Of a stretch of DNA of 64,000 nucleotides, positions 6,305 through 52,100 are shown one piece after another. The notes under the pieces are model-generated. The model was not told the origin of the DNA. It was given only the letters and a program-made list of their open reading frames with translations, and did no database searches. Position 1 is the stretch's first letter, and each line of letters opens with the position of its first letter. Source of the DNA: Diphasiastrum complanatum (taxonomy: Eukaryota > Streptophyta > Lycopodiopsida > Lycopodiales > Lycopodiaceae); NCBI GenBank assembly GCA_029204225.1, contig CM055111.1:18889015-18953014 (forward strand), read 5' to 3'. The position numbers were made by a program, and so were the translations under genes.

Positions 6305-7179
6305 ATAACAATGTTCACAATATCACAACCTTTTTTGCACATACCCTTTCATACAAAAATTTGTGCAAATTGTCACTACAATTTTTTGAAATTTTAAAAT
6401 AAACAAAATACTTCTCGCTTATTTGACAATAGGGAAGGGCCTTTCTTTATGCCTAGGCGGAAGAGCATTGCAAAACTCCTCTCCACCCCAAAAAAAATCC
6501 CCATACCATAACAATATAAATACTTTAAAATAACCATGCTTGTACAAAACTTACTTGTAATAGAAAAGCATAAACGTAGCATACAATCTGATGCTAAAAA
6601 GACGTATGCTTCACAAAAAGACTCAATTAGTTTGCGCGAACACGTCTTGCTGGGAATGAAAGCAATGGATAACCTCTTGTGACATTTTCTCTCTTATTCT
6701 CGTGCATTATTCTTAATCTCGTTTTGTTAAAATCTTAAAGTTGGAGCTAAGTAGGGCTATGATTCGGCTCGGCACAATTCTGTACAGCGTGTAAACAAGT
6801 TTGATAGATTATAAATGGATTGAAGGAGAGAACTGCTCTTCGTTGAGATTCAACATCACTGCCTTACTCGGAACTCCATAGCGGCATTGTTGGACACCCA
6901 TCATCATATTATTGTTTACGAATATGGCAGGCTCTTATAACTTCGGTTGTGCCTAGAGGGGATTGACTACACAGAAGCAGATAAAGAGTTCAGGTTAACC
7001 TGTGACAGAATAGGAAATTGGATCTTAAAGCTAGTGGAAATGGAAAGAGAACTTGGAGACAATTTCCTGCCCTGCAAGACATCCTAACAACCTTCGAGCT
7101 CGTAGTCGAGCTTTTATTGGCATATTGCTGAGAAAGTCATTTTGTCAGAAAGCTAACACCGCTTCTAATTTTATCTATT
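6305..7179. other. Segment present only in duplication copy 1; no gene seen
   Basis: About 875 bases here have no counterpart in copy 2, where the flanks meet directly at about 39730. Either an insertion in copy 1 or a deletion in copy 2 explains this. Only short ORFs are present, and no target duplication or terminal repeat was seen at the edges. Confidence 0.5.
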
Positions 7180-8085
7180 TTATGCTACTTTTATTTTAAA
7201 GAGGCTTTGGCCCCTCACATCTTGCGAGCACGGGCCGCACGTATGATGGTTTGGCCCCGGTGCCCTCCTGACCACACGTTTTCTTTTTTTAAACTGCCTG
7301 CCTGAACGCCACGTGTCCAAGTAGACAGTTTATATCCCATAAGCATTTCTACAAGGTAAGGGGAGGAAATATATACAGAAACCCACCTAATCGCTAGCAT
7401 GTGTGTGTGTGTGTGCATGGGTGCCCGGCGCCACCCGCCCTGCCCAACGCCACTGCCCGGCGCCACCTGCAGGCTGCCCGGCGCCACCCGTCCTGTCCGA
7501 GACTGCGGCTCGGTGCCGTGGGTGCCCGTGGCCTGGGGCTGCCTGTCGAAAACCCTCAAGCCAGCCACACCTCAAATTTTGGCGGGCACCCCCTTGCGGA
7601 CACCCGTCAGCCGCTGGGGGGCACCGGGGCCAAAACCCTCCCACGTGCGGGCCGTGCTCGTAAGTCCCAGGGGGTTAAAGCGGCCCGGATATCCACCCAC
7701 ACACACGTGAGCAGGGAAGGTAACGGGAATGTACGTAACCAACCAAACCCAACCACCACACCCGGGGGCCTATTACTTCTATGTATTTAACTGAACTACG
7801 CAATATTTCGCGAACAGATTTTTGAGCACTCATTCGCCAATATCATAGACATGCTCTTCAGTGCCTAGAAAAGATGGAGATCCAACATCTACTACCGGAT
7901 TATGAACTCTGGTACTGTATTGTGGAGGTTTGAAAGAGTTAGTAAATACGGATAGACAATCCGTGTTCTTCTGAATCATGAATCATGAAATCTACGTCTT
8001 TAACAAGCCTCTCGGTTTGAGCAGTATAGAATGGAGATTTTAGTTGAGATATCGACATGACTCATGGAAGATGATCAGCACTGAG
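7180..8085. repeat. Segmental duplication copy 1, part 2 (GC-rich core)
   Basis: Matches 39733-40640. The core (7400-7720) is GC-rich, unlike its AT-rich surroundings, and holds a (GT)n run and three imperfect tandem copies of TGCCCGGCGCCACC. Open frames exist in several phases on both strands, as expected of GC-rich sequence, and none looks like a protein family. It may be part of an unidentified mobile element or LTR. The match with copy 2 stops at GAGGAGGGTCG. Confidence 0.8.
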
Positions 8086-8718
8086 GAGGGTCGATACCAG
8101 GACATTTTTCATCAAATAGCCATGATCCGGTCTGGAAAGATTCTGGCGAAAATTCAGGTGGCCATTTTCTGTCTTCTGTATCTTAAGGCCCATATCTATT
8201 TGGTACAGTTGAAAGCGATTGGTAGGTTTTTGAGATGTCATTTTGTTGGTCCACATAGTTGCTAGTAGAACCATCGGTCCTCCCAAAAGTTCAAGACTGT
8301 TTGCAGATTTGTGTCGGAGAAGTGTAGAGAAAAGTGCACCCCAGACTGGAATAGTCATGTAAATGAAAGTGGTGACGGATGCATTCACACCACGCAGAGC
8401 TCGTATTTCCAACCAGCTGCATAGTCCACCATAGACGAGACCATAGTACATCAATGGAAACCATGGTAAAGGTTGGGCTAGCATTGTGGAATCTAAGCCC
8501 CAATCACTGGAACTGGTGCGTAGATTGCATATCTCCCAAAAAGCACTGAGAACAGTTAATACGGCTAACTGAACGACATTTAAACGCTTTGCATTCAATG
8601 CTTTACCAATTTTGAGGACTTCTGCTCGAAATTTTTGCAGAGCGGAAGTTAAAGAACTGGCGAAAACCCATGAATTTCCACCTTGAGCGCGATATATACA
8701 CAAGGAACTTTTGATCAT
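8062..8718 (-). CDS. EamA/DMT-family transporter, C-terminal fragment
   Basis: A 218-codon frame holds an EamA-like half: LNVVQLAVLTVLSAFWEI, then PLMYYGLVYGGLCSWLEIRALRGVNA, TFIYMTIPVWGALFSTLL and LELLGGPMVLLATMW, giving about four hydrophobic segments. Drug/metabolite transporters normally have ten, so the N-terminal half is missing. The ATG at 8718 lies directly at an ATTCCTATATAGGAA palindrome, so the upstream coding sequence was lost or is separated by an intron. The last 20-25 residues read into duplicated repeat DNA and are probably not native. It has no stops inside, so it may be recent or part of a spliced gene. A membrane solute transporter is inferred from the family; the substrate is unknown. 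Confidence 0.65.
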   Translation of the reverse strand: MIKSSLCIYRAQGGNSWVFASSLTSALQKFRAEVLKIGKALNAKRLNVVQLAVLTVLSAFWEICNLRTSSSDWGLDSTMLAQPLPWFPLMYYGLVYGGLCSWLEIRALRGVNASVTTFIYMTIPVWGALFSTLLRHKSANSLELLGGPMVLLATMWTNKMTSQKPTNRFQLYQIDMGLKIQKTENGHLNFRQNLSRPDHGYLMKNVLVSTLLSADHLP

Positions 8719-19130: not shown

Positions 19131-19557
19131 GTTTATAATTTTGTTATTGTTATATTTTTTCTAAAATACAAGAGATAAAAGTTTGAGATAGCATTTTTTT
19201 CTTCAATCTAAATATATCATTTGGAATTCCTTGCAGAATACCATCGAAATAAATTCCTTTACAATGAGACATGGAGGACTTCACGAGGGATCAGCTGTTG
19301 GGCAAAAGGAATCATCGTTCGCCCATTACTTGAAAAGTTTTGTAAATAGAAAAATTTGTATATATTATTCAAGTTATAGTCCATTTTTTGCCACTGTTAT
19401 AATGGCAATTAAGGCCTTATCTATTTGCTTAGGAGGCCATAATTACTCAAGAGGAACATTCAAAATTGTTTTTGTTAAGAGGGATCTAGCCATTAATATA
19501 TTGGGTTATGTGCTTGGAAATACAAGAAAAAGATCATCTTCAATGGCCCTTTATTCA
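19131..19557. other. No gene assigned
   Basis: A 119-codon plus-strand ORF (19231-19590) overlaps the beginning of the copia RT in another frame and shows no family signature. The left limit of the copia fragment is near 19557. Confidence 0.45.
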
Positions 19558-20770
19558 GCTTACATTATTTGGAGGAGGAGATCTACATGAGGCAACCCGA
19601 GGGCTTCATCAAGCAAAAGCATGAAGAAAAGGTGTGTTTTTTGAAGAAGAGCCTTTATGGGCTCAAGCAAGCACCTAGAGCATGGTCCTCTAGGCTAAAC
19701 TCTTTTCTCATGTCCATCAATTTTGTATTGAGTGCATATGATCCATCATTGTATATAAGAGTTCATGACGATAAGATCATTATTCTTGTATTGTATGTAG
19801 ATGACATTATTTTGAGTGGTAATGATCTAGATGGAATTAGAGATGTAAAAATTACTTTGTCAAAAGAGTTTAAAATGGTAGATCTCGGCCTATTAAGCTT
19901 CATTTTAGGAATAGAAGTTATTAGAGGATGTGATTTTAGCTTCATTTGTCAATCTAAGTATGCTACATCCATCCTAGATAGATTTGGAATAAAGAATTGT
20001 AAAGGCATTGATACCCCAATGGAGCAACATGTAAAAGCATCTATTGATGGTGATGAAGCATCCTTTGAGGACATCACTTTGTATAGAAGTCTTATAGGCT
20101 CCTTAACATATTTGACTATAACTGCACCTGATCTTAGTTACAGTGTTGGAAAGTTAAGTCAATTCATGCAAAGTCCTTTAGTTTCACATTGGAAGATGGC
20201 CAAAAGAGTTCTTAGATATATCTCATCTACTACAAATTTTGGCATATTGTATAGAGGGACTAATATTGGCTTAAGAGCCTATAGTGACTCGGATTTTGCA
20301 GGTGACAAAGTGGATAGGAAATCAACAAGTGTTTTTGCCACCTTTCTATGTGAGGGATTAGTATCATGGCTTTCCAAAAAACAAGATACAGTCTCCATAT
20401 CTTCCATAGAATCCAAATACAAGGCCTTGACATCAACATGCAAGGAGGTCTTGTGGCTCAAAAGGCTATTGGTGGAGCTACATGTCATAAAGGAGGAGAT
20501 CCCAATCATCTATTGTGACAACCAATCATCCCAATCACTTGCCACTAATCCTACATTCCATGCAAGGAGCAAGCACATCGAGATTGCTCATCATTTTGTG
20601 AGGGAGAAAGTGCAAGCCAAAGAGATCAAGCTCCAACATGTGCCATCATCAAGTTGCTTGGCTGATTTGTTTACTGAATCTTTACCTAAAGATTCATTTG
20701 TCAAGCTTAGATTTTCAATTGAAGTGATTTTTAAAAGCATTATTGTTTCCAAGGCTAGATTTGAGGAGGA
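19558..20770 (+). pseudogene. Family E copia reverse transcriptase-RNase H, 5'-truncated but open
   Basis: The frame is uninterrupted for over 400 codons. RT motifs are LHYLEEEIYMRQPEGF, KKSLYGLKQAPRAW and the catalytic LYVDDIIL (about residues 75-82 from the ATG at 19569). RNase H follows with AYSDSDFAGDKVDRKST, SWLSKKQDTVSISSIESKY, IIYCDNQSSQSLATNP and ARSKHIEIAHHFVREKV. The reading passes through the polypurine tract into the 3' LTR and stops at 20810. Gag, protease, integrase and the first RT residues are missing, so it is a recent truncation rather than an ancient wreck. Several catalytic residues are conserved, but nothing shows expression. Confidence 0.92.
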
Positions 20771-20771
20771 G
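20759..20771 (+). other. Family E polypurine tract
   Basis: TTTGAGGAGGAG directly precedes the LTR TG at 20772. The same GAGGAGGAG occurs before the 3' LTR of element D at 38220-38228, so D and E share their end region. Confidence 0.7.
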
Positions 20772-21415
20772 TGTGAAAAATTGCCAACTTTGGCAAATGT
20801 AGCCATGTAGCATATTGTACATTTTTGTCTATAATTGGATTCCACACATGTATGGCCAGAGTGCCATGTGGCAATCTACTCCTAAAGTAGGCTAGCTCGA
20901 GTCAAAAGAAGTGGTTGTGTCTATTTAATAGAGATCCCTACTTTATAGGATCTAGACCTTGATTTATGATGAGATTTGGACCAACTAGCTATCTATCAAG
21001 CATGACTCTAGGAAATAGGCTAGGGTTTCATTTTAGGGCAAAAAGGTTGAGATAACCTCCTTATTGCATGCTAGAAATTCACCTAACTTTACAAAGGAAG
21101 TGAGTTTTGCTATGTATTCCATCTCTCCATAGTGAGAAGATAGATTATTTTTGGAGCACATTGGCAATTTCAGATTTGCTCTCTATGTAAATTTTTTTTC
21201 TTTGCTCCAAATGAAACCAACACTTAGTACACATCAAACACTGTCTATAGGCCGTACAACATGCTTCTCTTCACACATGTGGGCTCGGATCTATGTTCTT
21301 GATCTTAAATTTGATTTTCAATGCTTGTTATTTGTCAAATTGCCAATCTAGATCAAGATTTTGTTGACTAGCTTTGGACCAAATTTGAAAAATCATTTCC
21401 TAGACAATTAAGAAC
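20772..21415 (+). repeat. Family E 3' LTR
   Basis: Starts TGTGAAAAATTGCC. It is related to 25170-25768 and 41267-41718 (shared words CTAGGCTAGGGTTTCATTTT and CACATGTGG). The expected end GTACTTTCACA is not reached, because at about 21416 it meets a minus-strand gag. Confidence 0.8.
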
Positions 21416-21418
21416 AAT

Positions 21419-21890
21419 CTATACAAGCTCTCCATCTTGAATATTCTCTCCAATGGAAGCCAACTCCCTATTTAGAGACTTGATTCTAAGCACATAATCA
21501 GGTGCACTCTCCTCACTTCTCTTCATGCTTTGCAAAATTTGATTTCTAAGCATAAGTACTCTAGAAGTGTTACTAGATTCATAGATTGATTTTAAATAAT
21601 TCCAAGCCTCTTTAGCACTTGTACATAATGATTGTTCTCTCAAAAGCTCATTGCTCAAATTCATCCTCACACAATGAAGTTCAAGCCTAAATCTCTTTTT
21701 GTATCTCACTAACTCATGTGCACCTAGAGGTTCATCTTCATCCTCAATCAAGTACTCATAAAGTCTTGGAGCACCAATAGTGACTCCATCCTAACCTTCC
21801 AAATAGCATAATTAGTAGAATTCAATCTCTCACTAGCTTCTAGAAGGTATACTCCAATAGATCCCATCTTACTACAAGAAATAGATTTGA
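21419..21890 (-). pseudogene. Copia gag N-terminal part (family E related)
   Basis: From about 21868 downward the reading begins MGSIGVYLLEASERLNSTNY, then AIWKVRMESLLVL. After a frame change, EPLGAHELVRYKKRFRLELH, LCTSAKEAWNYLKSIYESSN and YVLRIKSLNRELASIGENI follow. This is the retrotransposon gag (UBN2) domain also seen in element D at 35.5 kb. It is cut at 21419 by the plus-strand LTR, giving a tail-to-tail arrangement. Confidence 0.85.
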
Positions 21891-27415: not shown

Positions 27416-27650
27416 AAGTTAATCTCTCACTTGCTTCTAAAAGAAAAAATCCAAATAGAATAATTAGATGAAGTTAATCTCTCACTTGCTTCTAAAAGGA
27501 AAATCCAAATAGAATAATTAGATGAAGTTAATCTCTCACTTGCTTCTAAAAGGAAAAATCCAAATAGAATGATTAGATGAAGTTAATCTCTCACTTGCTT
27601 CTAGAAGAAAAAATCCAAATAGAATGATTAGATGTAGTTAATCTTGATTT
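27416..27650. repeat. Four-copy 61-62 bp minisatellite derived from a copia gag start
   Basis: The unit beginning TTAATCTCTCACTTGCTTCT recurs four times. On the minus strand it encodes LLEASERLTSSNYSIW, the same phrase as the gag start at 21.8 kb, so the array is an expanded piece of retrotransposon gag rather than ordinary satellite. Confidence 0.85.
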
Positions 27651-32785: not shown

Positions 32786-33061
32786 TCGGAAGTGGTTGTG
32801 TGAAGTCTTGACTGTTAGAAGAGTAGCAGTGGCTAAGTTTGTAAAGATAGCTACTTCTTCTTCCAAAGGCTAGAACCTTATGGTGTCAAAAAGGGATCTA
32901 TCTTCAATAAAACCATATTGACTCTTGGAAAAGTGGGAGGAGAGGAGAAGAGAGGGGCAATCCTTGCTACGATCTTGTAAGAGGTGTTTAGCATAGTTAG
33001 AGGGTGGTAATGAGATATTCTAGTGGGTATCTCAGAGATTTTTTTAAGGGTCATCATCTGA

Positions 33062-33955
33062 AGATGCAGACAATTATTTGTCTCAATTTGAATCTATTAC
33101 TATAGCAAATAAAAAACATACAGACAAGGACAAAGTTAAAATTTTTCCAGGTCTTCTGCGGAAGCAGGTTAAGATTTGGTACAGTCAATTAGTACCGGAA
33201 ACGGTTAAAACTTGGAATGCTTTAAGAGCAGCTTTCCTTAAGCAGTTTAGGGAGATAGGATATTATAGAGACAGAGACGTTCGTTGTGAATTTCTTTGTC
33301 ATAAACCCACTAGATACACCACCGTATTCAATATTAATTAGAAGACTGTTCCTAATGGATTTTATTATATTAAGAACTACAAGAGAATCATTGTATAAAG
33401 TATTATTAGGATGACCATGGCTCTACCAGGCCGATGTCATTGCCCACTGGAAGAAGAAGGAGATTACCTTCAGAGATCAGATAGAGACACCGACGGGGAA
33501 AAGTCATAAAAGAATTATGATATCCTGGGAAAAAGATAAGTACGTGAGACACCTACATCATCCTCGAGCTATACTTCGGAGGATGAAGGGCTTCAGTCCA
33601 TAAGGATTGAGGAAGGGGAGAGGTTTGTCACACTAAGTATACCTGCATATAGTAATGAAGTAGAATATATAGATAGAGGAGATTGTGGAGTCCCATAAAT
33701 TAGTGCTGTTATAGGAGATCATACTATAGATAGAATACTTATAGACTCAGGATCCAGTATCAACTTAATAACAGAAAAAATGGTTAAGGAATTAGGACTA
33801 GAAAAATAGATACAGCCTATTACATACCATGAAATCCTTTTAGCAAACGCATCCAAATGCATACCAGTAGGTGAGCTAAAAGGTATTAGTGTAGTTATAG
33901 AGACATAGATGTTCATTATAAATTTCTTTGTCATAAACCCAATAGATACACCACC
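33062..33955 (+). pseudogene. Ty3/gypsy gag-protease fragment, left part
   Basis: 33078-33341 reads FPGLLRKQVKIWYSQLVPET then LRAAFLKQFREIGYYRDRD, a retrotransposon gag (PF03732-type) segment. The aspartic protease follows at 33620-33950: AVIGDHTIDRILIDSGSSIN, LITEKMVKELGLEK and ETxMFIINFFVINPIDTPPY, with the catalytic DSG preserved. There are stops before ISAVIG and after GLEK. Element D is inserted at 33956, and the reading resumes after 39053. Confidence 0.85.
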
Positions 33956-33960
33956 GTATT

Positions 33961-34780
33961 TGTGAGAAACTAACAAAAATCTAGCTTGGTATTTTTTATG
34001 ATAGAAGTTTGTAAGTGAATCTCACATGTGTGGAGGATGTTCCCACGTGTGGAGAATTGTAAAGTAAATCAAAATGTTTGATATAGGGGTCTCATAGAAT
34101 TTCATAGTCAAGCATTTAGGTGTAGGATGTTGATAGGGTCAAATTTGGCATAGATGGCAAATTATCCATTTCCACTTGTTATGCCAATATTGAGCCAAAA
34201 TAGAGCCAAACTTGTGCCAATTAGAGTGTAGACAAGTGTCATGCTTTTGTTTGATGAAGCTTAAGAGGTCCAATAGGATTTAGAGGTGGAACCTTGTGAG
34301 GTCCAATAGAAAATTGGGGTGTGCTTGAATATAGTCCAATAGAATTTAGAGGTGCATGGATCAATGGTCCAATAGGATTAAGAGGTGGCAAAGTGTGATC
34401 CAATCATAGTTAAGCATAGTGGTAGCTCATGAATCTATTAGTATCATTGTACTCCTCCTTTTGGATCTTATTGATTTTGAGATTGAGTGGATTTTGAGTG
34501 TCATTGAATTTCTAGCTTTCTCTCTCTACCCGAGAGCTCATGATGGTTTTTCTCTCTCTACCCAAGGAGAGCAGCTTGTTTTTACTTAGAATACTTTTGG
34601 AACACTTCCCACACGTGTGAGTGAGAGTTGTAAGTGATTGAATGCATGTAGTAGTGTGTTTTTGCCATAGAATCAAAGATAGATCTTGAATCTCAATCTA
34701 GTCTTGATCCTGGTGCATCTACACACCTTAGGAGATCACAAGTACATGTAGTGGACAATCCACACGTGTGAAATTCAACA
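33961..34780 (+). repeat. Element D 5' LTR
   Basis: 820 bp from TGTGAGAAAC to AAATTCAACA. It contains several CACACGTGTG/ACACGTG palindromes and ends directly at the primer-binding site. About 13 differences from the 3' LTR were counted by eye, including three clustered at the start. Confidence 0.95.
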
Positions 34781-34793
34781 TGGTATCAGAGCC
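34781..34793 (+). other. Element D primer-binding site
   Basis: TGGTATCAGAGCC, the standard initiator Met-tRNA primer site, with no gap after the LTR. Confidence 0.95.
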
Positions 34794-35531
34794 TAAGGTT
34801 ACCATGCATTTTGATCCATTTGAGTGAAAACTATTCATCAATCTTGAGTTAGAAATTGTCAAGGCCCATTTTCCTGGCTATCTTGTTCAATTTTGGATCA
34901 AAGAGATCAAAAGGACATTGATTGGGTCTGATCTGGTACTGTACGGAATCAGGTGCTCAGACACGTGTGAGGAACATCCAATTTCAGTTTGGGAGTTCTC
35001 TTTCATGTTTGATCCAAAAATCTTGCTAGATAGCTTGTTTTGAAGCTATTTTTGTCTAGTTTCTAATCAATCAGTTTCATTCCATTTGGTTGAGCCAATC
35101 AAAAGTTATAAGCTTTTGAAGAGGGTTAGGTAGGGCACCTAGACCTGGGTGGACACATTTGGTTTGGTCAAAAGATTGCTTGTTTGATCCAAAATCACAG
35201 TTGAATGCTTACCAATCTCATCTATATGTGATCTAGGCACTGTTTTGAGATCTTAGCCATTTTGTTTCATGCAGTATCATTGTATTTGAGTCAAATTTGG
35301 TTTCTTAGTGTATTTCACACGTGCTAAGAGTGTTTGATCCTAACTTTGCCCATACTCCATCATTTGATGTGAAGTAGATCTAGTTTTGGAGAGATTGAGA
35401 TAGCTAGTGAAAATCATCTCACAATTTGTTGCAAGATCTTGCATAGGAGATGGTAGCACACCATTATTGGATCCTATAGTGAGAGAGAAGCAACATTTTT
35501 TGTTCATCACTTTTATTTATTTCCACTTTAC
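34794..35531. other. Element D untranslated leader
   Basis: About 740 bases between primer site and first ATG, without long ORFs. It holds short CACGTG words and would contain packaging and dimerisation signals in a functional element. No specific structure could be assigned. Confidence 0.6.
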
Positions 35532-38102
35532 ATGACTTCAATGAGTTCATACTTGTTGCAACCAAGTGACAGATTGTCTACTTCCAATTATTCAATATGG
35601 AAGTTGAGGATGGAGTCCATCTTGATACTCCAAGATGTGATGGACATTGTACTTGGGATTGAGGAGGAGCCTCAATTCCTTCAAGAAGTACAAAAATACA
35701 AGAAGAGAGCTAGGATGGCTCTCCACTACATTAAGATGAATGTCTCTAATGAGATATTGAGGGAGATTGGTGATTGTTCTACATCCAAGGAAGCTTGGGA
35801 TTGTCTCAAGTCCATCTATGAGGCTAAGAACACCTCTAGGCTCCTCACTCTTAGAAATCAAATATTCCAAAGTAGTCAAAAGAGTGATGAGAGTGCATCT
35901 AATTATGTTTTGAGAGTCAAGGATATTCATAGGGAGCTTGCATGTATTGGTGAATCAATCAATCAAAGTGAGCTAGTCCAAGTCATTCTCAATGGCTTGA
36001 GAGATGAATATGACAACCTTGTCCAATCCTATGCCATTAAGGAGGAGCTACCAAGTTTGGAGGCCCTTCAAAGTGTGCTTATTTCTGAAGAATCAAGACA
36101 AGAGTACAAACTCTTGAGGATGGACAAGCTATCACTCAATCATGATGATGGCAAAGTTCTATTTGCCAAAGAGAGGAGTAAGAAGCAACACCATCACTTC
36201 TCTAATGACAAAGCTAAAGACCAAGATGAAGATGAGGAGGGGGATACCTCTCATGCTTCTACTTCAAATCTCAAGAAGAAGAAGATCAAGTGCTTTTATT
36301 GTGGCAAGAAAGGCCATTATGCCACCAATTGCTTCAAGAAGAAGAATCAACTCAATCAAGCCAACATCACCAATGAGAAAGAAGACTATATTGCAAGTGA
36401 TGGAGAAGGCTCTCTTATGGCATCAAGCTTCTCCTCTTCCACCTTCAACAAGGATGACTCATGGTATATTGATAGTGGAGCATCTTCACATATGTGTGGC
36501 TCCAAGCACTCTTTTTCATCTATTATGCCTTATGATGGAGTCAAGAAGACCATATACTTTGCAAGTAAGCATGAGTGCAATATTGAAGGAGTAGGGATTA
36601 TTCCCTTGAAGGTTGCATCTTCTAAAGATCTCTTTCTCAACAATGTTCTTTTTGTCCCAAAGCTTACAAAGAACATCTTAAGTGTTGGCCAACTTCTTGA
36701 TAGTGGCTTTGATGTCAATTTCAATATTGACAATTGTGTGATTAAGAAGGATGGTGAGATCCTTGCATATGGATCAAGATTTGAAGGCATCTACAAATTG
36801 GATCCAAGTGAGAGTGCAAACTCTCTTGATGTTTCTTATATTTCCAATATTTCAAAGGAGGAGGATTACACAAGATGCACATATCTTCTCTCTTCAAGTA
36901 TTACGGTGTATGATTATTCCTTATTATTCAAAGCATATGTTGAGAAGAAATTCTCATTGAAGATCAAAGCTTTGAGGAGTATTGGAGATCTTGAAGGAAT
37001 AGCACCATATGAAGTTTTATTCAAGATGAAGCCTAAGGTTGATCACCTTAGTGAACTTGGTAGTGCTTGCTTTGCACATATTCCCTTGGAAACAAGAAGG
37101 AAGGATGATCCAAGCTCATGGATCATGATTTGATACTCATCCAACAAGGAAGCCTTTAGTGTCTTTACACTCTCTATTTCAAATGTGATCGTGAATAGAG
37201 ATGTCATATTGCATGAAGATTCAATCTTGGAAGTGGCCGAGATCAAGGCTTCTCAAGAAGCATCACAAGTTGTCTTTTTTGAAGGTATTCAAGTTATGAT
37301 GGGGCCAATGTGTGAGGAAGAGCTTCTTCTTCATATGATTTCAAGAAGATCTTCAAGATGCATGGCCGAGTCTTTATGGCTCACCTTACATGGCAAAGAG
37401 GGGCATCTTTCATGTTGTATCTACTACAACACATTCATATATGCTTCTCTTCCTTTGCTTGAAATGCTATCTTGCTTCATTGAATTTTTTGGATCTCAAA
37501 GTTCAAGAAAAGCTATACTAGTTTTGTATGATGCTTATGGTATGGACATGTTTCTTGTCATTATTGACTTAGATGTGTTTCCAATACTTTTTGAAAGCAA
37601 GATATTGTATTGTCAAAAGTATGCTCTTGGTTCTAGTAAGAACAAGATTGAGCTTGGTACTCACTTTTTTGAAAATCATGTTTTCACATGTTTTGAGGCA
37701 AATTGTAAACTCCTCTTGAGATTAAGTGAAGCATCCAAAGTGGACACTTACATCCTTGAGAGAGTAACTAGCCTAAAAAAGATCAAGATAGTCTTTGATA
37801 TCAAGATTAGATCCATCATGGATATAGTTCATTGTATGTGGACTAGTCAAGCTAGAAAGCATAATCTTGATTTTCATCATTGTTTCACATCTTATGATCT
37901 TGATCTCCATGATCCTTATGAGGCTTGGAAGCCTCAGATTTTTCTATTTATGGTGCATCCATCATGCAAGTGGAACTTTCAAGGCAAAGATCATCATCAA
38001 GCATGGAGGAAGCCCATGATAATAGTGGCATGTTGGTGGAGCACTCTTCAAAGGCATTGGCAAGAGATCTCTACCAAAGAGACCTTATCATGGATATGGT
38101 GA
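35532..38102 (+). CDS. Element D polyprotein: gag, protease, integrase remnant and unknown C-terminal region
   Basis: One reading frame of 857 codons is broken by one TGA (37131-37133). Gag starts MTSMSSYLLQPSDRLSTSNY and has the UBN2 domain (to about residue 200). The zinc knuckle is CFYCGKKGHYATNC (35.29-36.33 kb), and the protease is DSWYIDSGASSHMCGSKHSF with DSG intact. After about residue 445 most of integrase is deleted; only the C-terminal phrases APYEVLFKMKP, GSACFAHIPLETRRK, YSSNKEAFSV and NVIVNRDVILHEDS remain. The TGA replaces the Gly usually before YSSN. From about 37260 to 38102 (280 codons) the protein matches nothing I recognise. The region has FEANCKLLLRLSEASKVDTY and ends TLSWIW. 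A paralogue lies at 40.6-41.1 kb. RT and RNase H are absent. The gag and protease could still be functional. Confidence 0.85.
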
Positions 38103-38129
38103 GGGTGCTGCTATGATGGATCCCTTGGC

Positions 38130-38228
38130 TGATCTTCACTTCTTATGCATACCAAAGGATCCACTCAAAAAGATTTACAAACTTCTCAAGTGATCTAGTA
38201 CCTTTCCAAGCTATTTTTTGAGGAGGAG
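38130..38228 (+). other. RNase H tail and polypurine tract of element D
   Basis: Shortly after the stop, a frame reads LADLHFLCIPKDPLKKIYKL, the remnant of the copia RNase H end (compare LADLFTESLPKD in family E). The purine tract GAGGAGGAG at 38220-38228 precedes the LTR. The unknown region therefore sits exactly where RT and RNase H should be. Confidence 0.75.
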
Positions 38229-39048
38229 TGTGAGAAATTGGCAAAAATCTAGCTTGGTATTTTTTATGATAGAAGTTTGTAAGTGAATCTCACATGTGTG
38301 GAGGATGTTCCCACGTGTGGAGAATTGTAAAGTAAATCAAAATGTTTGATATAGGGGTCTCATAGAATTTCATAGTCAAGCATTTAGGTGTAGGATGTTG
38401 ATAGGGTCAAATTTGGCATAGATGGCAAATTATCCATTTCCACTTGTAATGCCAATATTGAGCCAAAATAGAGCCAAACTTGTGCCAATTAGAGTGTAGA
38501 CAAGTGTCATGCTTTTGTTTGATGAAGCTTAAGAGGTCCAATAGGATTTAGAGGTGGAACCTTGTGAGGTCCAATAGAAAATTGAGGTGTGCTTGAATAT
38601 AGTTCAATAGAATTTAGAGGTGCATGGATCAATGGTCCAATAGGATTAAGAGGTGGCAAAGTGTGATCCAATCATAGTTAAGCATAGTGGTAGCTCATGA
38701 ATCTATTAGTATCATTGTACTCCTCCTTTTGGATCTAATTGATTTTGAGATTGAGTGGATTTTGAGTGTCATTGAATTTCTAGCTTTCTCTCTCTACCCG
38801 AGAGCTCATGATGGTTTTTCTCTCTCTACCCGAGGAGAGCAGCTTTTTTTTACTTAGAATACTTTTGGAACACTTCCCACACGTGTGAGTGAGAGTTGGA
38901 AGTGATTGAATGCATGTAGTAGTGTGTTTTTGCCATAGAATCAAAGATAGATCTTGAATCTCAATCTAGTCTTGATCTTGGTGCATCTACACACCTTAGG
39001 AGATCACAAGTACATGTAATGGACAATCCACACGTGTGAAATTTAACA
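38229..39048 (+). repeat. Element D 3' LTR
   Basis: 820 bp, same length as the 5' LTR, starting TGTGAGAAATTGGC and ending AAATTTAACA directly before GTATT. Confidence 0.95.
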
Positions 39049-39053
39049 GTATT

Positions 39054-39342: not shown

Positions 39343-40640
39343 TTTCATTGGGTTGTTTGAATGCAACTTAGAATTGTAAAATAGGGTTACAAATGATGTT
39401 ATATTTATGCTATTTCACATCTTTATAATATGCAACATTATCAATACAAATATATATTCGTAAATGAGTCTAACTGTGCAATTGATTTTCAACAAACAAA
39501 ATATCCAACAATTTGGAAATTGTTAAAATATGTGATTTAGCAAATCATAAGCTCGCATAACTCGCACACATTTACTTGCAAAGTGTCGAGTCCCAAGCCC
39601 AAGGAAGTCTCTCTCTCCAAGGACACACACTTGCAAGTGTAACCCAGATTCTCCACAATTTTCTACCTATTATGAAATTAGAGTTTCGATTAACAAAGAG
39701 ATTATTAAGTCCATATCGAAAGCAATTTTTGTTACTTTTATTTTAAAGAGGCTTTGGCCCCATGCATCTTGCGAGCACGGGCCGCACGTATGGCGGTTTG
39801 GCCCCAGTGCCCTCCTGACAACACGTTTTCTTTTTTTTTGTTTTTTTTTAAAACTGGCTGCCTGAACGCCATGTGTCCAGGTAGCCAATTTATATCCCAT
39901 AAGCATTTCTACAAGGTAAGGGGAGGGAATATATACAGAAATGCACCTAATCGCTAGCATGTATGTGTGTGTGTGTGCCTAGGTGCCCGGCGCCACCCGC
40001 CCTGCCCGACGCCACCTGCAGGCTGTCCGGCGCCACCCGCCCTGTCCGAGACCACGGCTCGGCGCCGTGGGTGCCCGTGGCCTGGGGCTGCCTGTCGAAA
40101 ACCTTCATGCCAGCCACACCTCAAATTTTGGCGGGCACCCCCCTACGGACACCCGTCAGTCGCTGGGGGGCGCACCGGCGCCAAACCCCTCCCACGCGTG
40201 GGGGCCGTGCTCGTAAGTCCCAGCGGGTTAAAGCGGCCCGGATATCCACCCACACGGGGGCAGGGAAGGTAATGGGAATGTACGTAACCAACCCAACCCA
40301 ACCACCACACCCGGGGGCCTATTACTTCTATGTATTTAACTGAACTACGCAATATTTCACGAACAGATTTTTGAGCACTCATTCGCCAATATCATGGACA
40401 TGCTCTTCAGTGCCCAGAAAGATGGAGATCCAACATCTACTGCCGGATTATGAACTCTGGTATTGTATTGTGGAGGTTTGAAAGAGTTTGTAAAGACGGA
40501 TAGACAATCAGTGTTCTTCTGAATCATGAATCATGAAATCTACGTCTTTAACAAGCCTCTCGGTTTGAGCAGTATAGAACGGAGATTTTATTTGAGATAT
40601 CAACATGACTCATGGAAGATGATCAGCACTGAGGAGGGTC
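39343..40640. repeat. Segmental duplication copy 2, parts 1 and 2
   Basis: 39343-39730 matches 5917-6304, and 39733-40640 matches 7180-8085; the two blocks are adjacent here but 875 bases apart in copy 1. It includes the GC-rich core with the (GT)n run and TGCCCGGCGCCACC copies. It stops at GAGGAGGGTCG, where a different sequence begins. Confidence 0.88.
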
Positions 40641-40641
40641 G

Positions 40642-41142
40642 TTGTTTGATCAAATGAGTGCTCTCATATTTAGGAAGATCAAGAATGAGTTAATCACTCA
40701 TTGTTTTGAAACATGTGTTTTTTCTTTTGGAGAGGCAAATTGTAAGCTTCTTATGAGAATAAGTGAAACATCCTCGAAGGACACTTATATCCATAAGCAA
40801 GTATGTAGCCTCATGAAGTTCAAGATCACTTGTAATTACAAAATTAGGAAAATCATGCTTACTTTTGATGGTTTGTGGACTAGTCATTTTAGCATGATAG
40901 ATCTTGGTAATAGTGGCAAGTACATGTTTTGTGATCTTGATCAATGTGACTTTCACAAGACATGGAGACATCAGATTTCCTTCAAAGAGAAGCATCAAGA
41001 TCAAGGAGGAGAAAGTTTCAAGTTCATGCCTCTTCACTCAACATGGAAGAAATCAAGTGCAAAGGTGCAAGGAAAAATCAAGACTCTTCAATTCATCTTG
41101 GAGGAGATCAAGATCAAAGAAGCTCTATCTTGGATATGGTGA
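40642..41142 (+). CDS. Unknown 166-codon ORF, paralogue of the element D C-terminal region
   Basis: The frame is open from FDQMSALIFRKIKNELITHC to EALSWIW, but it begins on a non-ATG codon right at the duplication edge, so it is probably 5'-truncated. It aligns with the D polyprotein at THCFETCVFSFGEANCK, SETSSKDTYI, KIRKIM and WTSH, with about 35 of 62 residues identical by eye. Both also share CDLD/YDLD and a WR/WK-QI motif further on, and both end with an identical LSWIW stop. A piece of a family E internal end and LTR follows, again placing this coding region just upstream of an LTR. No known domain is recognised. Mostly hydrophilic, with no membrane segment. Confidence 0.65.
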   Translation: MFDQMSALIFRKIKNELITHCFETCVFSFGEANCKLLMRISETSSKDTYIHKQVCSLMKFKITCNYKIRKIMLTFDGLWTSHFSMIDLGNSGKYMFCDLDQCDFHKTWRHQISFKEKHQDQGGESFKFMPLHSTWKKSSAKVQGKIKTLQFILEEIKIKEALSWIW

Positions 41143-49131: not shown

Positions 49132-52100
49132 TTTATCATCGCAAGATTCAAATTCATCAACCAATACATCTTGCAACTCATCTCCGCTAAGATGATTTTT
49201 ATCATCACTATCGAAATCAAAACCTCTCTCAATATTGTCCTCATGCAAAGAATCATTGTTGTCCTCTTCATCATCTGAGTTGTCGGAATCATGAGAATCA
49301 ATTCTTGGGTTTTCAATATTTATAAAACTCGAAGGTATATGTACATCTTCATCAGATATACTTGTGTTGTCCAAATTTAGATCTTCCATTTCATTCTCAA
49401 CATATGCATTTTCGAATACATGTCTCGAGCATGGTTTAATTTGAACAACATACCACCAATCTTTGTTTAGTCGATCTGGTTGAAAAAATACCTGCACATT
49501 TAGCAATGTTAGGATTAGATATTTGTTATGCTCACATTTTAATTCACAATAAATAGATGTAATGAAAAAAGTAGTGTAAATGATTAATATAATATTGATC
49601 ACAATTGATCACAATTGACAAAAAGAAAAAAATGTGAAATTCATGCACACCTGTTCACAATGACGAGGCAACACCAACGTGTCTGAAAAGTCCATGCTTA
49701 ATGTCTTGGTTGAATCGATAGCAAAAAATCCACTACGATCGTTTTTTACAGTTGCATTTGATCCTCTATAGTTGATCTTGAACCATTTCACGTCAAACAA
49801 CAAATATTTACCCATTCACCAAAACACACCTCATATATGGCTTGTATGGTTCCTACACACTCAAGCTCTCTAGAAATTGGACTCTGATCTCGAGCACTAC
49901 TTTGACTTTCTTGATGGAAGGATGTCATCACACCACAATCATAAGTTCGTCGTTTCATATCAATTGATTCAATGCGATGATGATGACCACATGCCCACAT
50001 TGCACTATACTTTCGATACCGTCACATGTTGATTATAATTAAAACAATAATCAATCATCGTACAAATCAAAATTGTTCACTTAAAAAAAATAGAGTTATA
50101 GACAAACCTTCCAATCACATCCTCTTGCAAATCCTCATTCTGTGTCAGATATGAATTGTCCCTTTGATCTTGCTTGCTGGAGTGTGTCAACCATTCAGTC
50201 TATAGTGCATTGGTTGGGCAATGGCTCAAGATCATGCGAAGGTGTAGCTTGACCTCTACGCCTATTGCATCAGTGTCAATTTCTAGTCAATACCCTCTTT
50301 TTTTTTTCTTCTTCATATAATTCCAACCATTTATCCATTACTCCTGAATTATATAGCATGAAGGTTGAAATTTTTTCTCTCACACTGGGTGTCATTTTTT
50401 TAAGACTACCCATACCTTGAGGTTCTTTACCTTTCACCTCATTGCTTTCCTCATCATGCCATAGTCGTGGAGCAGATGGATCTATTTGAAACAAAACTTC
50501 AGTAACATAAAATAGAGATTCTTGCACTAACCATCCCTCTGACATGCTTCCCTCTGGCCTTGCCTTCTGACGCACAAAATCTTTCAACACTTTCATGAAT
50601 CTCTCCAAGAAAAACATCCACCTACATAAAATTTTAACACATCAATGAGAACATTCTGTTATTTATATTTTGAGAAAATCACACTACATTTATTGAAACT
50701 ACTAAAATCAAATTCAAGTGTATTATATCTTGAGTGCACAAGACCGGCAATACCAACTTCTTGGACCAAGTGCACAAGCAGATGCACCTGTATGTCTAGG
50801 ATAGAAGTTGGAAAATCCCTCTCAAGCATATATACACCCTCCACCATATCTTCTTGTTTTGTTTGCACGTCTATCTCACGAATCTCCTTACCACACATCC
50901 ATCTATAACATGTTTGTAGTATAACTAGATTTTAGTACGTTCATATTATTTTATCGAACTTGTATTAGAAAAAAACAAAATTTCATAAGATATCGATGTA
51001 AATAAAAAGAATCAAGTACTTGACAACGGATGCTAATTTGTAAATGGCATCACGAAGTTGATCAGTTAGACAGCCACGAATGCACATTGGAAATATGTAC
51101 TCGACCATCTTCAACCAATTGTGAGATTTTAGACCATGGAGTTTTCCTTCAGTTGTGAATGATGTTCGTAGTGAACAAGCAAAACCCGTTGGTGTTCTCA
51201 TCTCTCAAATGACTGACCGTACGTACTTATACTCTTCTTTCGTAAAAATCCAAGGGGCTCTTGGAATACTATAGGTATCTCCATCAGTACATAATTTTGG
51301 CCGATACTCTTTTTTTGTTTTTGATTCTTGTAGATCATGCTTGGCAGAAATACTGTCTTTGTCGCCCACCAAGTGTTTCCATACTGATTCACCCACATTT
51401 TTGAATATCTGCATAGGATCAAGCAAGTAATTGATCAAAAAGTTATTCCAATATGGTAAACAATGAAAGATGGATAGTCTTTTCATACCATTGATTGGCT
51501 TAGTCTCAGATTCAATCCAAAGTTTGTGCCAATCGGCCACGGACATTCTCTTTGGAGGCATCCTTGTTTCTGATCTTCCTCCAAAGCTTCTTCTATGAGC
51601 ATTTCTAAATGGATGATTTTCATCATGCAAGTACTTGCGATGATTTTCATACACAACTTTGTTTAAATGCCGTGAGTGGCGAGCATCAATATTTGGTCCA
51701 CAAATGAGACACGCGTGATATCCAAAAGTTGTAAAACCTAAAAGAATCAAATCCAATTCGTGTTATAAATAGAATTCTTTTAAAGCATAAATATTTTATG
51801 CATAAAGAATAAATATACAAACATTACAAATGATTTCATTTTATAGTCACCTGAACAATCGCCCAATCCTGGATAGTCATGCATAGTCCACATTAACATC
51901 GCACGCAACAAAAATGTTTTGTCTTGAAGTGGACGTGAGATGTCATATGCTTGGACTCCCTTCCATAGTAGTTCTAGTTCCTCAATCAATGGTGCAAAGT
52001 AGATATCCATATTTTTTACTATGTTTTCCAGGAATTAGAAGTGCTAGTATGAGATATCCTTTTTTGATGCTTAGCCAAGGTGGAATGTTATAGTTGACCA

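What the first reader, a model, noticed from the sequence alone, without database searches (positions are those of the whole stretch)
37260..38102. Element D carries an unknown about 280-codon region in place of its polymerase
The sequence shows a complete LTR element with gag, protease and an RNase H tail, but with an open unrecognised region where integrase core, RT and RNase H should be. The region is in the same frame as gag-protease, with a single TGA between. Non-autonomous LTR elements are known, but a retained open fusion region of unknown origin on an element with near-identical LTRs suggests either a captured gene or a functional accessory domain.
Basis: partly seen in the sequence, partly recalled or inferred. 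Interest (0 to 1): 0.82.

Follow-up and report, generated by a model that had tools for sequence, protein, structure and literature searches.

The report
Jumping gene with swapped-in unknown tail
A plant jumping gene that lost its copying enzymes carries an open reading frame of unknown origin in their place; the same piece sits in a second, distantly related family, but it does not evolve like a working protein, so it looks more like a carried and traded passenger than a new enzyme.

Summary
Element D (33961-39048, TSD GTATT) is a non-autonomous Ty1/copia element: gag, zinc knuckle, protease, integrase scraps, then an open stretch to 38102. No Pfam or PDB relative, no confident AlphaFold model. 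The start of the interval holds an integrase-RT linker remnant; the novel module is about 37605 (perhaps 37546) to 38102. D is one of many: of 124 scored genome copies (26,838 candidates) 63 have an open frame of 880 codons or more; D's TGA is absent in 20 of 20 fetched copies. Four of 21 elements have identical LTRs: recent mobility. A second family (F2; one piece at 40642-41142) carries the module between an RT scrap and the PPT, where a polymerase-bearing relative has RT-RNase H. Between families the module shows no clear amino-acid selection: codon positions 62/59/64% identical against 66/81/45% in gag. Its fourfold sites are 61-72% identical against 25-35% in gag and protease, so it was shared more recently than gag, or is held at nucleic-acid level. 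Capture or swap: supported. Functional protein domain: not shown. No autonomous D relative was found; the genome search stopped answering.

The parts
33961..34780 (+). 5' LTR of element D (TG...CA), TSD GTATT at 33956-33960
34781..34793 (+). primer binding site TGGTATCAGAGCC (copia-type, initiator Met tRNA; recalled)
   Evidence: sequence
35532..37133 (+). gag (PF14223), zinc knuckle (36285-36335), protease/BBD (36462-36710), integrase scraps incl. SH3-like end (37023-37130); ends at TGA 37131-37133
   Evidence: a stop at that codon in 0 of 20 other copies
37134..37220 (+). rest of integrase C-terminal region, in frame (YSSNKEAFSVF...NRDVILHED; reading by eye)
37342..37398 (+). remnant of integrase-RT linker shared with family F2 (71-78% DNA identity in five of six copies; z 18 and 20 for the two copies tested)
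37404..37604 (+). open stretch, hydropathy peak at its end; not securely alignable to RT (z 1.5, 2.4) or to F2 (37404-37545: z -0.3 to 3.4; 37546-37604: z -0.3 to 2.6, though blastn joins 37546-37604 to the core in two of six F2 copies)
37605..38102 (+). novel module, core: shared with F2 at 61-62% DNA and 41-43% amino-acid identity, same stop position
38125..38175 (+). short scrap like the RNase H C-terminus (LADLHFLCIPKDPLKKI), after the stop
   Evidence: weak (E 1.4)
38220..38228 (+). polypurine tract GAGGAGGAG
   Evidence: same motif before the LTR in F2 copies printed
38229..39048 (+). 3' LTR, TSD GTATT at 39049-39053
40642..41142 (+). second, diverged copy of the module (family F2), truncated at its 5' side
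19497..20810 (+). RT-RNase H frame of a polymerase-bearing F2-type element; PPT at 20763-20771, F2-like LTR from 20772

Best explanation
Element D is a member of a large, recently mobile, non-autonomous Ty1/copia family whose RNA encodes one long frame: Gag-protease-integrase scraps-linker-module. It supplies its own Gag and protease and must borrow RT, RNase H and integrase from an autonomous copia element (inferred). Its missing polymerase was replaced by a roughly 0.5 kb module of unknown origin whose in-frame composition is coding-like. The same module lies in a second family, F2, whose gag and protease are diverged from D's to about synonymous saturation, while the module is less diverged at silent sites. 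The most likely reading is that the module was captured once and then passed between non-autonomous families by template switching between co-packaged RNAs. Its amino-acid sequence drifts nearly freely; the frame has so far stayed open, either for lack of time in a family that turns over fast or because a long frame that ends just before the 3' LTR favours the RNA (for example by avoiding nonsense-mediated decay; inferred, untested).
For: 124 scored copies, 63 with open frames of 880 or more; 20 of 20 fetched copies have two LTRs and a full-length tail; LTR identity 96.5-100% over 21 elements, four at 100%. F2, pieced together from several copies: gag/protease within 1.5 kb upstream in 22 of 30 loci, linker, RT scrap (six of six copies compared), module, RNase H scrap, PPT, LTR. 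Module not alignable to RT-RNase H of the polymerase-bearing relative (z 0.0 to 1.3, seven tests). Codon positions 0.62/0.59/0.64 against gag 0.66/0.81/0.45 (position 2 against 3: module p 0.50, gag p 1e-14 and 8e-12). Fourfold sites 11/18 to 13/18 over seven F2 copies against 5/20, 10/33, 9/26, 6/20, 10/31 in gag and protease; same-copy Fisher p 0.018-0.036. In-frame codon score +0.24 and +0.26 against at most +0.05 in other frames. AlphaFold mean pLDDT 41.8. Precedents for template switching that brought foreign DNA into plant elements: Veju, BARE-2 (PMC13317346, passages read).
Against: Similarity between D and F2 is in islands (37342-37398 and 37605-38102); the DNA between them, before them and after them aligns weakly (z -0.9 to 4.2), which a single recent block transfer does not predict. 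Zero stops in both lineages is unlikely under pure drift (P 0.005-0.02 per lineage at 20-25% divergence, 0.09-0.11 at 10%), though copies were picked by protein score. The module's amino-acid identity (41-43%) is above the mean of the neutral simulations (33-36%) and just under their maxima (44-47%), and 5 of 7 bootstrap intervals of omega stay below 1, so weak constraint is possible. In one of six F2 copies (L042) the match to the polymerase-bearing element reaches about 80 bp into the module's end. Fourfold counts are small and the comparisons are not independent. No autonomous D relative, third family or donor gene was found.
Confidence: 0.5

Rival explanations
1. The module is a fast-evolving functional C-terminal domain of the Gag polyprotein (for example binding RNA, a host factor or the helper's polymerase), with selection on a few residues only.
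For: Frame open in D and in F2 with the same stop position; core codons 30-49 show positions 0.75/0.90/0.75; nearly invariant blocks such as E-A-N-C-K-L, D-T-Y-I and an L-S-W-x-W end; 5 of 7 bootstrap intervals of omega below 1; D within-family N:S 41:23 against an expected ratio of 2.86, p 0.09; in-frame composition coding-like.
Against: No overall codon-position bias; omega 0.54-0.71 inside the neutral simulations (mean 0.81-0.82, minima 0.29-0.45); F2 within-family N:S 110:38 neutral (p 0.70); pLDDT 41.8 and pTM 0.32; no Pfam or PDB relative.
Confidence: 0.22
2. The islands are held at nucleic-acid level: a cis-acting RNA signal (packaging, dimerisation, export) lies in the linker and module, and the open frame is incidental.
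For: All three codon positions equally conserved and fourfold sites more alike than in gag; islands of similarity flanked by weakly alignable DNA; whole module folds more stably than mononucleotide shuffles in D and F2 (z -3.5 and -3.8) and the joint fold beats column shuffles (-143.8 against -95.9, sd 6.0); one F2 module window has z -3.1.
Against: With dinucleotide shuffles the four D tail windows give z +0.3 to -1.8, while two gag windows give about -5; the covariation term of the joint fold is worse than for shuffled columns (88.8 against 76.7); in-frame composition is coding-like.
Confidence: 0.15
3. The module is a decayed, rearranged piece of the element's own RT-RNase H, too diverged to be seen.
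For: It sits where RT-RNase H belongs, next to RT and RNase H scraps; in L042 the match to the polymerase-bearing element reaches about 80 bp into the module's end; D 37404-37604 against RT-RNase H gives z 2.4.
Against: Module against RT-RNase H of the F2-type relative: z 0.0 to 1.3 in seven tests, while the true RT scrap beside it is still 72-83% identical at DNA level in six copies.
Confidence: 0.1

Closest known systems
TR-GAG elements (terminal-repeat retrotransposons with GAG; a copia example in Arabidopsis, PMC8704663, passages read)
   Same: Two LTRs, a single open frame with Gag, no polymerase, mobility that must use other elements' enzymes
   Different: D also keeps protease and integrase scraps, and its family's frame continues into a module of unknown origin shared with another family
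Bs1 of maize (PMC13317346, passages read)
   Same: LTR element with foreign sequence taken into the element
   Different: In Bs1 the donors are known host genes; here no donor was found and the module is in two families
Veju TRIMs and BARE-2 (PMC13317346, passages read)
   Same: Unknown or foreign DNA brought in by abnormal template switching
   Different: BARE-2 concerns the LTR and Veju a small TRIM; here an open frame stands in place of the polymerase
Orchid Gypsy elements with an AlkB m6A demethylase (PMC9289625, abstract and outline read)
   Same: Extra protein-coding region in a plant LTR element
   Different: That domain is recognisable and was tested in vitro; this one has no relative found here and no clear selection signature

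Membership tests
Ty1/copia LTR retrotransposon (non-autonomous) | two LTRs with TG..CA, 5-bp TSD, copia PBS and PPT | tested here: met
   (PBS type recalled)
Ty1/copia LTR retrotransposon (non-autonomous) | copia-type gag and protease | tested here: met
   PF14223, PF22936
Ty1/copia LTR retrotransposon (non-autonomous) | lack of RT and RNase H domains | tested here: met
   no RVT_2 in the two frames scanned (35532-37130, 37134-38099); LTR starts only 4268 bp apart
TR-GAG | single open frame that encodes Gag between two LTRs | tested here: met
   met for the family, not for D itself, whose frame is split by a TGA: 63 of 124 scored copies have open frames of 880 or more codons
TR-GAG | Gag as the only encoded protein | tested here: not met
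   protease domain present and 165-230 further codons of unknown origin
TR-GAG | mobilised by an autonomous relative | not tested
   no autonomous D relative was found; genome search unanswered from then on
Captured host gene (Bs1-like) | identifiable host donor | tested here: inconclusive
   no Pfam or PDB match; genome hits were not screened for a gene outside elements
Functional accessory domain | purifying selection on amino acids | tested here: inconclusive
   no codon-position bias and omega inside neutral simulations, F2 N:S neutral; but 5 of 7 bootstrap intervals below 1

The most novel reading that the evidence does not exclude
A mobile module, an open frame without conserved protein function, is traded between non-autonomous copia families and kept open because an uninterrupted frame up to the 3' LTR protects the RNA (for instance from nonsense-mediated decay) while leaving amino acids free to drift.
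Probability: 0.15. Interest if true: 0.65.

Novelty: new variant of a known kind. Interest (0 to 1): 0.4.

Why it matters
High-copy elements that keep Gag and protease but swap their polymerase for an open module let one ask directly why parasites of retrotransposons keep long frames at all. A module shared by two families, with silent-site divergence unequal to that of gag, is a test case for module exchange by template switching in plants.

Tried and rejected
Rejected: module as a known domain (Pfam, where the best of six weak and disagreeing families had E 0.008; PDB; phages; viral contigs; prokaryote genomes: no relative). By their descriptions these last collections are not plant collections, so this says little about plants. 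Rejected: antisense gene (no antisense frame of 60 codons overlaps 37260-38102). Not favoured: remnant of RT-RNase H (but see L042). RNA structure: one search gave stable folds against simple shuffles but a worse covariation term than shuffled columns; dinucleotide-shuffled windows showed nothing special in D's tail; a first, slower run hit the time limit. The other integrase-bearing stretch in the window (46.5-48 kb) seems truncated before RT (translations read by eye). The AlphaFold model was too poor for a fold search, so none was run.

Limits: copies are the best-scoring ones (124 of 26,838 and 150 of 10,276 first-look candidates), which favours intact frames; a sample through the 3' UTR, free of that bias, was asked for and not answered. 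Of the 30 F2 loci, tail comparisons used 7 (with the window copy as one of the seven, 95) to 14 with usable frames; the N:S count used 29 loci plus the window copy. In one search silent distances above the saturation limit were set to 3.0 by my script. In one search the integrase-remnant interval was given one base out of frame; its in-frame score is the third value. Two loci (L057, L058) are near-identical hits, and L057 has an RT frame of about 0.7 kb upstream of the linker, out of the usual order; I take it for a rearranged or nested copy and did not follow it up.

Full report
What is there. The window is G000:C20:18889015-18953014 of a 1.74 Gb genome, by its content a plant (inference). 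Element D runs from 33961 to 39048: LTRs of 820 bp at 98.4% identity, TSD GTATT, PBS TGGTATCAGAGCC, PPT GAGGAGGAG. Gag, zinc knuckle and protease lie in one frame that ends at a TGA (37131-37133) and goes on for 322 codons to 38102. Integrase survives only as scraps (SH3-like end, 24.9 bits, below cut-off); no RT was found in the two frames scanned.

It is a large and young family. The 322-residue query gave 124 scored copies out of 26,838 first-look candidates. 63 of 124 have an open frame of 880 codons or more, counted stop to stop (52 exactly 882), and 5 of 124 have a stop inside the tail. Of 20 copies fetched whole, 20 have two LTRs and a full-length tail, and 15 have a frame of 880 or more. 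With D, LTR pairs are 96.5-100% identical, four of 21 at 100%; TSDs are perfect in 18 of 21 by my reading of the printed ends, with a one-base shift in one and one mismatch in two. A stop at D's TGA codon is found in 0 of 20. These copies were ranked by protein score, so the share of open frames is an upper estimate.

What the unknown region is. Part of the finding's interval is not unknown: about 37342-37398 matches the integrase-RT linker of a second family at 71-78% DNA identity in five of six copies (z 18 and 20 in the two copies tested). The part without a known relative begins at about 37404; the part shared with the second family is 37605-38102, with blastn joining 37546-37604 in two of six copies but weak local scores there (z -0.3 to 2.6). 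It has no Pfam match of note, no PDB match, and AlphaFold gives mean pLDDT 41.8 and pTM 0.32 on 20 sequences from two families.

The second family. Window 40642-41139 translates to a 41.6% identical relative of the tail. Its query gave 150 scored copies out of 10,276 candidates. Pieced together from the 30 loci read: gag/protease matches within 1.5 kb upstream in 22 of 30, a linker, an RT scrap (six of six copies compared), the module with the same stop, an RNase H scrap, the PPT and an LTR that differs from D's beyond its start. A polymerase-bearing relative lies in the window: 19497-20810 is RT-RNase H followed by the PPT and an F2-like LTR from 20772. Against it, F2 loses similarity just after the RT scrap (72-83% identical) and regains it near the end of RNase H, in L042 about 80 bp inside the module. 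The module as a whole does not align to the missing part (z 0.0 to 1.3, seven tests, 60 shuffles each). In F2, then, about 1 kb of RT-RNase H is replaced by a module of about 0.57 kb. One locus, L057, has an RT frame upstream of the linker, out of order; I take it for rearranged.

Selection. Between D and F2 the module's codon positions are 0.62/0.59/0.64 identical; gag gives 0.66/0.81/0.45 and 0.61/0.74/0.39, protease 0.62/0.67/0.43. Position 2 against 3: module p 0.50, gag p 1e-14 and 8e-12, protease p 1e-5. The linker (39-40 codons) also shows no bias, e.g. 0.57/0.57/0.57. Omega of the module is 0.54-0.71 over seven F2 sequences, inside neutral simulations that average 0.81-0.82; gag and protease are 0.15-0.32, below the minimum of theirs. 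Five of seven bootstrap intervals of the module's omega lie below 1, so weak constraint is not excluded. Within F2 (30 sequences) N:S is 110:38, neutral (p 0.70), and 9 of 30 have a stop in the core; within D (21 sequences) 41:23, p 0.09. For a protein speak also: the open frame in both families (P of no stop by drift 0.005-0.02 per lineage at 20-25% divergence, 0.09-0.11 at 10%), coding-like composition in the frame used (D p 0.027, F2 p 0.002 and 0.005), and one better conserved stretch, core codons 30-49.

Age of the module. Fourfold sites are identical in 11/18 to 13/18 cases for the module over seven F2 copies and in 5/20, 10/33, 9/26, 6/20 and 10/31 for gag and protease; in the linker 3/8 to 4/8. 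Within the same F2 copy p is 0.018 to 0.036 (small numbers, comparisons not independent). Either the module was shared more recently than gag, as by template switching between packaged RNAs, or silent sites are held by a nucleic-acid role. The islands of similarity with weakly alignable DNA around them fit a simple block transfer badly. Folding is mixed: stable against simple shuffles (z -3.5 and -3.8), not special by dinucleotide-shuffled windows in D (z +0.3 to -1.8) though one F2 window has z -3.1, and no covariation support. I lean to transfer with drift, at 0.5.

How it most likely works. Shown: anatomy, copy number, recent insertion, shared module. Inferred: Gag and protease are made by D's family, RT and integrase come from an autonomous element, and the module is translated as a C-terminal extension. 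Not shown: any role of that extension.

Known and new. The nearest kind is TR-GAG (PMC8704663, passages; PMC9784723, passages). Foreign DNA in plant LTR elements by transduction or template switching is known (PMC13317346, passages), as is an added enzyme domain (PMC9289625, abstract and outline). The listings of the paper searches showed no description of this module that I recognised, but the library cannot be searched by sequence. I call it a new variant of a known kind.

Noticed in passing
window 40642-41142: Second module copy, cut at its 5' side exactly where a stretch 91% identical to 7179-8093 ends (39726-40641); by eye it also lacks the PPT and the first part of its LTR.
   Followed up: partly
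window 27420-27650: By eye, tandem repeat of a short piece of F2-type gag N-terminus (LLEASERLTSSNYSIW on the minus strand), about four units.
   Followed up: no
window 21007-21867: F2-type gag on the minus strand (21359-21867) directly beside F2-type LTR sequence on the plus strand (to 21361), as if two elements or halves meet.
   Followed up: no
window 51208-51762: Transposase_21 (tnp2) fragment, E 4.4e-11, beside F2-type gag remnants at 52.6-53.1 kb.
   Followed up: no
window 33048-33960: D is inserted beside a frame that by eye reads like another LTR element's gag (not tested), with a 66-bp direct repeat (33263-33328 and 33895-33960, 91%) whose second copy ends at the insertion point.
   Followed up: no
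G000:C20, 16.9-19.2 Mb: The F2 copies closest to the window copy cluster in this interval of the same chromosome: 11 of the 12 best rows lie there, the window copy itself included.
   Followed up: no
window 35561-35760 and 35961-36160: Two gag windows fold unusually stably (z about -5, 30 dinucleotide shuffles; the other D windows lie between +1.1 and -2.9); possibly a packaging signal (guess).
   Followed up: no
L057, about 278-998 of the locus turned to the module's strand: RT reading frame upstream of the F2 linker and module, out of the usual order.
   Followed up: no
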